NCBI RefSeq assembly: GCF_003945595.2
Contig: NW_024104773.1
Span: forward strand, 124,001-188,000
From: Pipra filicauda
Taxonomy: Eukaryota > Chordata > Aves > Passeriformes > Pipridae
DNA length: 64,000 bases
Direction of reading: 5' to 3'
Shown: positions 11,692 to 12,612 of the stretch, in pieces
Layout of the letters: every line of letters starts with the position of its first letter
Position numbering within the stretch: position 1 is the first letter of the stretch
Translations under genes and position numbers: made by a program
Notes under the pieces: model-generated
Told to the model about the DNA's origin: nothing
Seen by the model: only the letters and a program-made list of their open reading frames with translations
Database searches by the model: none

Positions 11692-12255
11692 TTTTCTTAC
11701 ATTTTTGTGTTACACAAGAAGAAGGAAGAGAGGAATTTTTTGATGAAACAGAGACGTTGTGACCTGTGACTATTTCAGCCTTTTCTAAAAGTTATTGAAC
11801 CAGTAGGTAACAGAGAAGAAAAGATTCTCAATAGAGAAATAGATTTTGCTATTGCCATGCCTGTCTGTGAATTTGACATGGGGAAGGATCCAGAAGTACA
11901 AGACTAGAACAAATATTCTCAATGTTTGTAAAGAAGCAGTGGATCTTCAAGATGACAATTCATCTCACAGTAGAGAACTGTATGTCTATCATCCAAATGT
12001 AGAGTCTTCAGCTGAACTACTAAAACATATCTACAGTAATCCAGGCAAAGGGCAAGTTATAGTGCTGATATGGGTAATAGTCTCATCAAACAGCAATAAG
12101 CAGAAATACACCTTAAAAATCAATCATGACTGTGTGCCTGAGCAAGTTATTGCTGAAGCAATTAGGAATAAAGTGCAAAGTGTGTTCCTGTCATCTGAAC
12201 AACTGAAACTTTGTGTCTTAGAGTACCAGGGAAAATATATTTTAAAAGTGCGTGG
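11692..12255 (+). pseudogene. PIK3CA: Processed PIK3CA fragment, 5' part of a chimera with CR1
   Basis: PIK3CA encodes p110-alpha, the catalytic subunit of class IA phosphoinositide 3-kinase. Reading the segment gives, in order, [76 protein letters not shown] and [16 protein letters not shown]. These are p110-alpha residues about 66-256: the end of the adaptor-binding domain, the linker and the front of the Ras-binding domain. The sequence runs without a break across where human splice junctions fall (near codons 118 and 188), so the template was spliced mRNA. It is broken: frame shifts lie around 11755 and at about 11910 (two bases lost after KDPEVQD), with stops in the original frame. The frame is then open to 12255. 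The last PIK3CA bases are GTGCGTGG, after which the sequence becomes CR1. The rest of the gene (kinase domain, 3' UTR, poly-A) is absent. A non-functional retrocopy is the only reading I find credible. Confidence 0.95.
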
Positions 12256-12612
12256 CTGAAGGGAGATGTCGTTGTGGTCTTCAACATCCTCATGAGGGGA
12301 AGCGGAAGGGCAGTCACTGATCTCTTCTCTCTGATGACCAGTGACAGTACTCGAGGAAATGGTGTGAAGCTGAGTCAGGGAAGGTTTAGGTTGGATATCA
12401 GGAAAAGGTTTTTCATGCGAAGGATGGTCAGGCACTGGAACAGGCTCCTCAGAGAAGTGGTCAGCACCAACCTTGTCTGAGATCAAGAAGCATTTGGACA
12501 ATGCTCTCAGGCACATGGTGGGACTCTTGAAGTGTTCTGTGGAGGCCCAGGAGTTGGATTTAATGATCCTGGTGGGACCCTTCCAACTTAGCATATTGTA
12601 TGATTGCATTGT
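12256..12612 (+). mobile_element. CR1-X-like LINE 3' segment fused to the PIK3CA fragment
   Basis: From CTGAAGGGAGATGTCGTTGT onward the sequence follows the last part of CR1 ORF2 and the 3' UTR. The landmarks are 'cactgatctcttctct...gaccagtgacag', GGTTTAGGTTGGATATCAGG, 'caggcactggaacaggctcc', 'gatcaagaagcatttggacaatgctctcaggcacatggtggga', 'ggcccaggagttggatttaatgatcctggtgggacccttccaact', and a decayed octamer end near 12590-12612. The element is on the same strand as the PIK3CA piece and directly abuts it. This is what a single reverse-transcription event with a template switch would leave. ACTC occurs just before the PIK3CA part (11688-11691) and just after the tail (12613-12616), a possible but weak target duplication. 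Confidence 0.93.

What the first reader, a model, noticed from the sequence alone, without database searches (positions are those of the whole stretch)
11692..12612. Chimeric retrocopy: spliced PIK3CA fragment fused to a CR1 3' end
Seen: an intronless, frame-shifted stretch matching p110-alpha residues about 66-256 stops at 12255. The next base begins a CR1-X-like ORF2-end/3' UTR on the same strand, with no poly-A and no rest of the gene. The junction shares GG between the two parents (PIK3CA ...GTGTGG; CR1 GGCTGAGG). Known: CR1 primes on its own 3' end and is thought not to copy poly-adenylated mRNAs, which is why processed pseudogenes are rare in birds; SINE origin by CR1 template switching has been proposed. 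Inference: the CR1 RT copied about 360 bases of CR1 RNA, jumped into a PIK3CA mRNA and integrated both. That would be a route for host mRNA capture in birds. ACTC at 11688-11691 and 12613-12616 may be the target duplication.
Basis: partly seen in the sequence, partly recalled or inferred. Interest (0 to 1): 0.88.

Follow-up and report, generated by a model that had tools for sequence, protein, structure and literature searches.

The report
PIK3CA mRNA fragment fused to CR1
An old, dead copy of a spliced piece of a bird's PIK3CA messenger RNA is joined directly to the tail of a CR1 jumping gene, which suggests that the CR1 copying machinery, thought to ignore ordinary messenger RNAs in birds, can occasionally capture one by accident.

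Summary
The core observation holds. The parent PIK3CA gene is in the same genome (contig C708). Window 11694-12258 is a spliced copy of part of exon 2, exon 3 and part of exon 4 (515 of 565 aligned bases identical, no introns). It runs on the same strand, without poly-A, into a CR1 3' end (12259-12605); they share CTG at 12256-12258, not GG. The copy reaches further upstream than reported: 11631-11692 matches a near-unique CpG-island sequence 16.4 kb upstream of the PIK3CA start codon, probably 5'UTR exon 1, with CpG-type decay. Both parts have indistinguishable apparent ages. No target duplication is demonstrable. The parent's own 3'UTR carries a sense CR1 of the same family, so one PIK3CA transcript could have supplied both parts; subfamily characters and a bootstrap (0 of 240) point elsewhere, but no AU test excludes it. 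Best reading: CR1 reverse transcriptase started on a CR1 RNA, jumped to PIK3CA mRNA, and jumped once more within it. mRNA-LINE chimeras are known for L1; my searches found none reported for avian CR1.

The parts
11214..11627 (-). CR1 3' end of another subfamily, minus strand, abutting the insert; interrupted by a tRNA-headed, CR1-tailed SINE (about 11457-11594; SINE type recalled). Surroundings; age order relative to the insert unknown. The right edge (11627) is set by eye.
   Evidence: 40 non-self genome matches, 74-84% identical, within window 11209-11452; SINE relatives at 44833-44946 and 51170-51294
11631..11692 (+). Copy of probable PIK3CA 5'UTR exon 1 (C708:659243-659304)
   Evidence: 46 of 62 identical, next best 30 of 62 in 127,878 placements over the window, both strands; 8 of 16 mismatches at CpG, 11 of 16 C>T or G>A; E 3e-6 in the 70-kb C708 region; parental 271-base piece has one other genome match, 84% over 53 bases
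11694..11842 (+). PIK3CA exon 2, coding nt 198-352; joined to the exon 1 piece at 11692-11694 (TCT shared, extra T)
11843..12050 (+). PIK3CA exon 3, complete apart from a 2-nt deletion
12051..12258 (+). PIK3CA exon 4, coding nt 563-770 (breaks off inside the exon)
12256..12258 (+). CTG shared by both parents at the join
   Evidence: overlap of 3 or more expected in 5.5% of random joins
12259..12605 (+). CR1 3' end (5'-truncated), intermediate between subfamilies that I call Q and P

Best explanation
A 5'-truncated CR1 3' end and an incomplete copy of mature PIK3CA mRNA were made as one chimeric cDNA by CR1 target-primed reverse transcription. The enzyme started on the 3' end of a CR1 RNA and copied about 350 nt. 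It moved at CTG to a PIK3CA mRNA inside exon 4, copied back through exons 3 and 2, jumped again at TCT from mid exon 2 into 5'UTR exon 1, and stopped near the probable 5' end of the mRNA. Shown: spliced mRNA origin, order, strand, direct join, missing poly-A, indistinguishable apparent ages. Inferred: that the left piece is exon 1, that it was one event, that CR1 enzyme did it, and that the CR1 part came from a separate RNA. The product has no evident function: it is a decayed pseudogene fragment.
For: Parent gene with introns in the same genome and a spliced copy here. Probable exon 1 copy at the left end, in the right order and strand, from a CpG island with donor GTGAGTGAG at 659461. Same strand and no poly-A at the join. 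Short shared bases at both joins. Divergence of the two parts indistinguishable: 24/366 PIK3CA codon positions 1+2 versus 25/328 private CR1 states, non-CpG sites only, Fisher p 0.66. No PIK3CA-gene match of weight beyond the CR1 (window 12595-13520 against 70 kb of C708, best E 0.004, antisense, 35 bases). The CR1 part groups with Q-type copies: best placement beside L028/L042, then L022; L022 is single sister in 50 and L029 in 46 of 240 bootstraps. Precedents: human L1-mRNA chimeras (PMC13174262, passages), fungal LINE double jumps (PMC2104539, passages), proposed CR1 template switching in passerine SINEs (PMC5729268, passages).
Against: No target duplication can be shown; a match of 10 or more bases like TGTACTCCTG appears in 6% of 1,260 control pairs, and other CR1 copies show no excess. 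Shared bases also fit end-joining of DNA. The parent 3'UTR carries a sense CR1 of the same family, second best of 39 listed non-self hits (40 of 6,180 candidates scored), which a separate-RNA model leaves as coincidence. The AU test does not reject that CR1 as closest kin, neither with free placement (2.05 log-likelihood units, p 0.47) nor on the fixed backbone (17.1 units, p-AU 0.077). One case only.
Confidence: 0.5

Rival explanations
1. One RNA supplied both parts: a PIK3CA transcript whose 3'UTR held a sense CR1 was recognised by CR1 enzyme through that CR1 tail, like a SINE. The stretch from mid exon 4 into the CR1 was skipped by an internal jump or lost as a later deletion.
For: Today's PIK3CA has a sense CR1 of this family after the stop codon (stop at C708:693835, CR1 match 694533-694892), and no AATAAA or ATTAAA lies before 695496, so the CR1 should be inside the 3'UTR. 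It ranks second of 39 listed non-self hits to the window CR1 and seventh of 64 copies by non-CpG distance. It shares with the window a state at 12598 seen in 2 of 40 copies. A chance sense CR1 of this family within about 1 kb of the stop is a 1-3% event by my rough estimate from local density (inference). AU tests do not reject the kinship (p 0.47; p 0.077 on a fixed backbone).
Against: That CR1 and the window CR1 differ at 8 of 21 sites that I chose because they separate the two subfamilies. It is single sister in 0 and nearest by path in 3 of 240 bootstraps, and on a fixed backbone ranks 23rd of 64 rows. The window CR1 is not among its own 39 listed non-self hits. It looks younger (14/329 private states versus 25/328; difference not tested). 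Its rank partly reflects closeness to consensus (29/351 differences against 44/350).
Confidence: 0.2
2. Two or more DNA events: a PIK3CA retrocopy made by another enzyme, and a CR1 inserted beside or into it, with the rest of the retrocopy removed by deletion.
For: CTG and TCT overlaps fit microhomology end-joining; no duplication ties the chimera together.
Against: No clear remnant of PIK3CA on the far side of the CR1; indistinguishable ages; needs a retrocopy by a non-CR1 enzyme plus a deletion ending exactly at the CR1.
Confidence: 0.2
3. The two RNAs were joined before reverse transcription (RNA ligation or trans-splicing), and the hybrid RNA was copied by CR1 enzyme.
For: RNA ligation and trans-splicing are proposed for L1 chimeras (PMC13174262, passages).
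Against: The join is inside exon 4 and, by eye, no split within CTG gives a GT...AG intron (sequence). Ligation would not need shared bases. The exon 1 to exon 2 jump still needs explaining.
Confidence: 0.1

Closest known systems
mRNA/LINE-1 chimeric insertions in human (PMC13174262, passages read)
   Same: Pieces of mRNAs or lncRNAs fused 5' of a LINE, most in sense; 15 of 17 map to the beginning of transcripts, as here
   Different: The described examples have target duplications and a poly-A/T tail, and most hold nearly full-length L1; here CR1, strongly 5'-truncated, break points inside exons, no duplication shown
Bipartite and tripartite LINE chimeras of Magnaporthe grisea (PMC2104539, passages read)
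   Same: Successive template jumps during LINE reverse transcription
   Different: Non-coding RNA and SINE partners, 33 bipartite copies, 14-bp repeats flanking the tripartite case
TguSINE1 and PittSINE of passerines (PMC5729268, passages read)
   Same: CR1 3' end joined to an unrelated RNA head, with template switching by CR1 enzyme proposed for PittSINE
   Different: tRNA heads and multicopy families; here a protein-coding mRNA and one copy
Ordinary processed pseudogene (features recalled)
   Same: Intronless copy of mature mRNA with frameshifts and stops
   Different: No poly-A, internal fragments only, CR1 tail instead

Membership tests
retrocopy of a spliced mRNA | parental introns absent at exact exon joins | tested here: met
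   exon 2/3 and 3/4 joins exact, parent introns 1520 and 668 bases
retrocopy of a spliced mRNA | untranslated sequence of the mRNA | tested here: met
   probable exon 1 piece; exon 1 identity inferred from CpG island, donor and position, no transcript seen
LINE-mRNA chimera by template switching | LINE 3' end and mRNA directly joined on the same strand | tested here: met
LINE-mRNA chimera by template switching | target site duplication around the whole chimera | tested here: inconclusive
   candidates at chance level; 34 distinct CR1 copies in this genome show no detectable duplication by the same test
LINE-mRNA chimera by template switching | parts of the same age | tested here: met
   p 0.66 for a difference; confidence intervals wide (4.2-9.6% and 5.0-11.0%)
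LINE-mRNA chimera by template switching | LINE part from a separate RNA | tested here: inconclusive
   subfamily characters favour it, AU tests do not decide
L1-type processed pseudogene | poly-A tail and mRNA 3' end | tested here: not met
   copy breaks off inside exon 4, no poly-A
LTR-mediated retrocopy | flanking LTR retroelement sequence | not tested
   only the left flank 11085-11213 was checked and has no other match at E up to 1; the right-flank search did not complete
single-event insertion | empty site in related species | not testable with these tools
   of birds only the window's own genome was available to the genome search

The most novel reading that the evidence does not exclude
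A host mRNA was mobilised because it carried a CR1 in its own 3'UTR: genes with a sense CR1 3' end near the end of the transcript would behave like giant SINEs and form a predictable set of source genes for bird retrocopies.
Probability: 0.17. Interest if true: 0.75.

Novelty: new variant of a known kind. Interest (0 to 1): 0.55.

Why it matters
Birds have few retrocopies (78 in chicken against 4738 in human in PMC3136929, passages; [quoted passage not shown] A PIK3CA-CR1 chimera suggests a way round that rule and makes two testable predictions: other mRNA-CR1 joins exist, and their source genes either do or do not carry sense CR1s in their 3'UTRs.

Tried and rejected
Single-transcript origin was my first conclusion, from the 3'UTR location of the second-best CR1 hit. 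I lowered it after the subfamily and bootstrap tests, but kept it as a rival because no AU test excludes it. TGTACTCCTG (11145-11154 and 12610-12619) as target duplication: rejected as evidence by the control. ACTC: four bases, no weight. A larger insert that also takes in the left CR1 and SINE as RNA-derived: none of the 40 other genome matches listed reaches beyond window 11209-11452 (40 of 5,627 candidates scored), and 11085-11213 has no other match. Splicing of exon 4 to CR1: no GT...AG split at the join, by eye. Leftover PIK3CA right of the CR1: none of weight. Other retrocopies: a human EEF1A1 query gave 16 matches from 18 scored candidates, the longest covering 105 of 462 residues, so none looks like a retrocopy. 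GAPDH did not complete, nor the right-flank repeat search. So no second mRNA-CR1 chimera was found or excluded. ARAGORN finds no tRNA in the SINE; its SINE name is recalled.

Weak points of my own calls: the mRNA model held one G too many at the exon 3/4 join, so replace its numbers. One search included L006 in the wrong orientation, so its printed consensus is not used. One search counted two loci twice (L006/L070 and L008/L071; 36 rows, 34 distinct), also among its control pairs. Consensus-based counts rest on copies picked for likeness to the query. The tree used 65 rows: window CR1, a second window CR1, the 39 non-self loci, and 24 of the 39 non-self hits (29 cut out, 5 dropped as duplicates, 10 not fetched).

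Full report
What is there. The window lies in a 1.08-Gb genome held as G000, contig C1124:124001-188000. It has several CR1 copies and tRNA-headed, CR1-tailed SINEs, which I take, from recall, for the TguSINE1 type of passerine birds. The parent gene of the PIK3CA piece is in the same genome on contig C708.

The mRNA part. Window 11694-12258 aligns to coding nucleotides 198-770, across the exon 2/3 and 3/4 joins with no trace of the introns: 515 of 565 aligned bases agree, with deletions of 4, 2 and 2 nt. A genome search with this stretch gives only itself and the three parental exons (4 matches). A stop-free 115-residue piece matches residues 142-256 of 1068-residue p110-alpha chains in the PDB.

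Immediately left, 11631-11692 matches C708:659243-659304, on the same strand, 16.4 kb upstream of the start codon: 46 of 62 bases, where the next best of 127,878 placements over the window reaches 30 (E 3e-6 in 70 kb). The parental site is in a CpG island, 156 bases before a strong splice donor (GTGAGTGAG at 659461), and is probably PIK3CA 5'UTR exon 1. Eight of the 16 mismatches fall on CpG positions and 11 of 16 are C>T or G>A, as expected for methylated decay. A 271-base parental piece has one other genome match, 84% over 53 bases. Searching the genome with the window piece itself found only itself; I take the search's first step to be too coarse for a decayed 62-base match. No transcript was available, so the name exon 1 is an inference. 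The copy therefore holds a probable exon 1 piece, then a jump to mid exon 2, then exons 2-3-4, and breaks off inside exon 4.

The CR1 part. From 12259 to 12605 the sequence is a 5'-truncated CR1 3' end on the same strand. CR1 copies mostly read GAGACTGAG at the join and PIK3CA reads GTGTGGCTGTG, so the shared bases are CTG at 12256-12258. An overlap of three or more is expected in 5.5% of random joins. There is no poly-A at the join, and 12595-13520 gives no match of weight to 70 kb around PIK3CA (best E 0.004, 35 bases antisense).

Ages. At non-CpG sites the PIK3CA part differs from its parent at 24 of 366 codon positions 1 and 2 (43 of 553 at all positions). The CR1 part has 25 of 328 states rare among its relatives. 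The difference is not significant (p 0.66). Similar age is what one event predicts, though the intervals are wide.

Target duplication. A 10-base exact repeat, TGTACTCCTG, flanks a larger block, but 6% of 1,260 control pairs have a match of 10 or more as well, and real CR1 copies do no better (3 of 36 rows). None of the 40 other genome matches to the left block takes in more than its CR1, and 11085-11213 has no other match. The insert's left boundary and duplication stay open.

Where the CR1 came from. The second-best of 39 listed non-self genome hits to the window CR1 (40 of 6,180 candidates scored) lies after the PIK3CA stop codon, in sense (C708:694533-694892). No AATAAA or ATTAAA occurs before 695496, so it should sit in the 3'UTR. 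One PIK3CA transcript could thus have carried both parts. Against this, the two CR1s differ at 8 of 21 sites chosen to separate the subfamilies; the window CR1 lies among Q-type copies in the tree; the 3'UTR CR1 is its single sister in 0 and its nearest row by path in 3 of 240 bootstraps, and ranks 23rd of 64 rows on a fixed backbone; and it looks younger (14 of 329 private states). For it: AU tests do not reject the pairing (p 0.47 free; p 0.077 on the fixed backbone), it is seventh of 64 copies by non-CpG distance, it shares one state seen in 2 of 40 copies, and its position would be a striking coincidence otherwise. I put a separate CR1 RNA first, with moderate confidence.

Mechanism. CR1 enzyme starting on its own RNA tail, jumping at CTG into exon 4 of a PIK3CA mRNA and again at TCT from exon 2 into exon 1, accounts for order, strand, missing poly-A, internal break points and similar ages. 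None of the steps was observed, and end-joining of separate DNA events is not excluded.

Known kinds. Seventeen human L1 insertions carry mRNA or lncRNA pieces fused 5' of L1, 15 of them from transcript beginnings (PMC13174262, passages; its main text has no occurrence of CR1 or bird). Double jumps are described for a fungal LINE (PMC2104539, passages). Template switching by CR1 enzyme is proposed for passerine SINEs (PMC5729268, passages). Chicken has 78 retrocopies in one survey (against 542 in platypus and 4738 in human; PMC3136929, passages) and 720 retropseudogenes in another (against about 2,000-5,000 in mammals; PMC2048973, passages). Tailless retropseudogenes were not found in chicken (PMC5322556, passages). 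Eight full-text searches, seen as listings, showed no paper that I recognised as reporting an avian CR1-mRNA chimera; the library lacks most subscription papers, including the 2015 paper on CR1 and retrogene scarcity. So this is a new variant of a known kind, from one case.

Noticed in passing
C708:694533-694892 (L003, L016): A sense CR1 lies in the probable 3'UTR of the parent PIK3CA gene; by eye its CR1-like sequence begins about 250 bases after the stop codon.
   Followed up: yes
12625-12671: A 23-base tandem duplication, 2 copies, just right of the chimera.
   Followed up: no
38001-40000: Strong purine skew on the + strand (GC skew 0.20, AT skew 0.23).
   Followed up: no
49755-49808: Octamer array GAATCACA, 6.8 copies, at a CR1 match that starts at 49789; CR1 tails are known for octamer repeats (PMC2612034, passages).
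   Followed up: no
G000 whole genome: EEF1A1, a gene with many retrocopies in mammals (recalled), shows none among 16 matches here: the longest covers 105 of 462 residues.
   Followed up: partly
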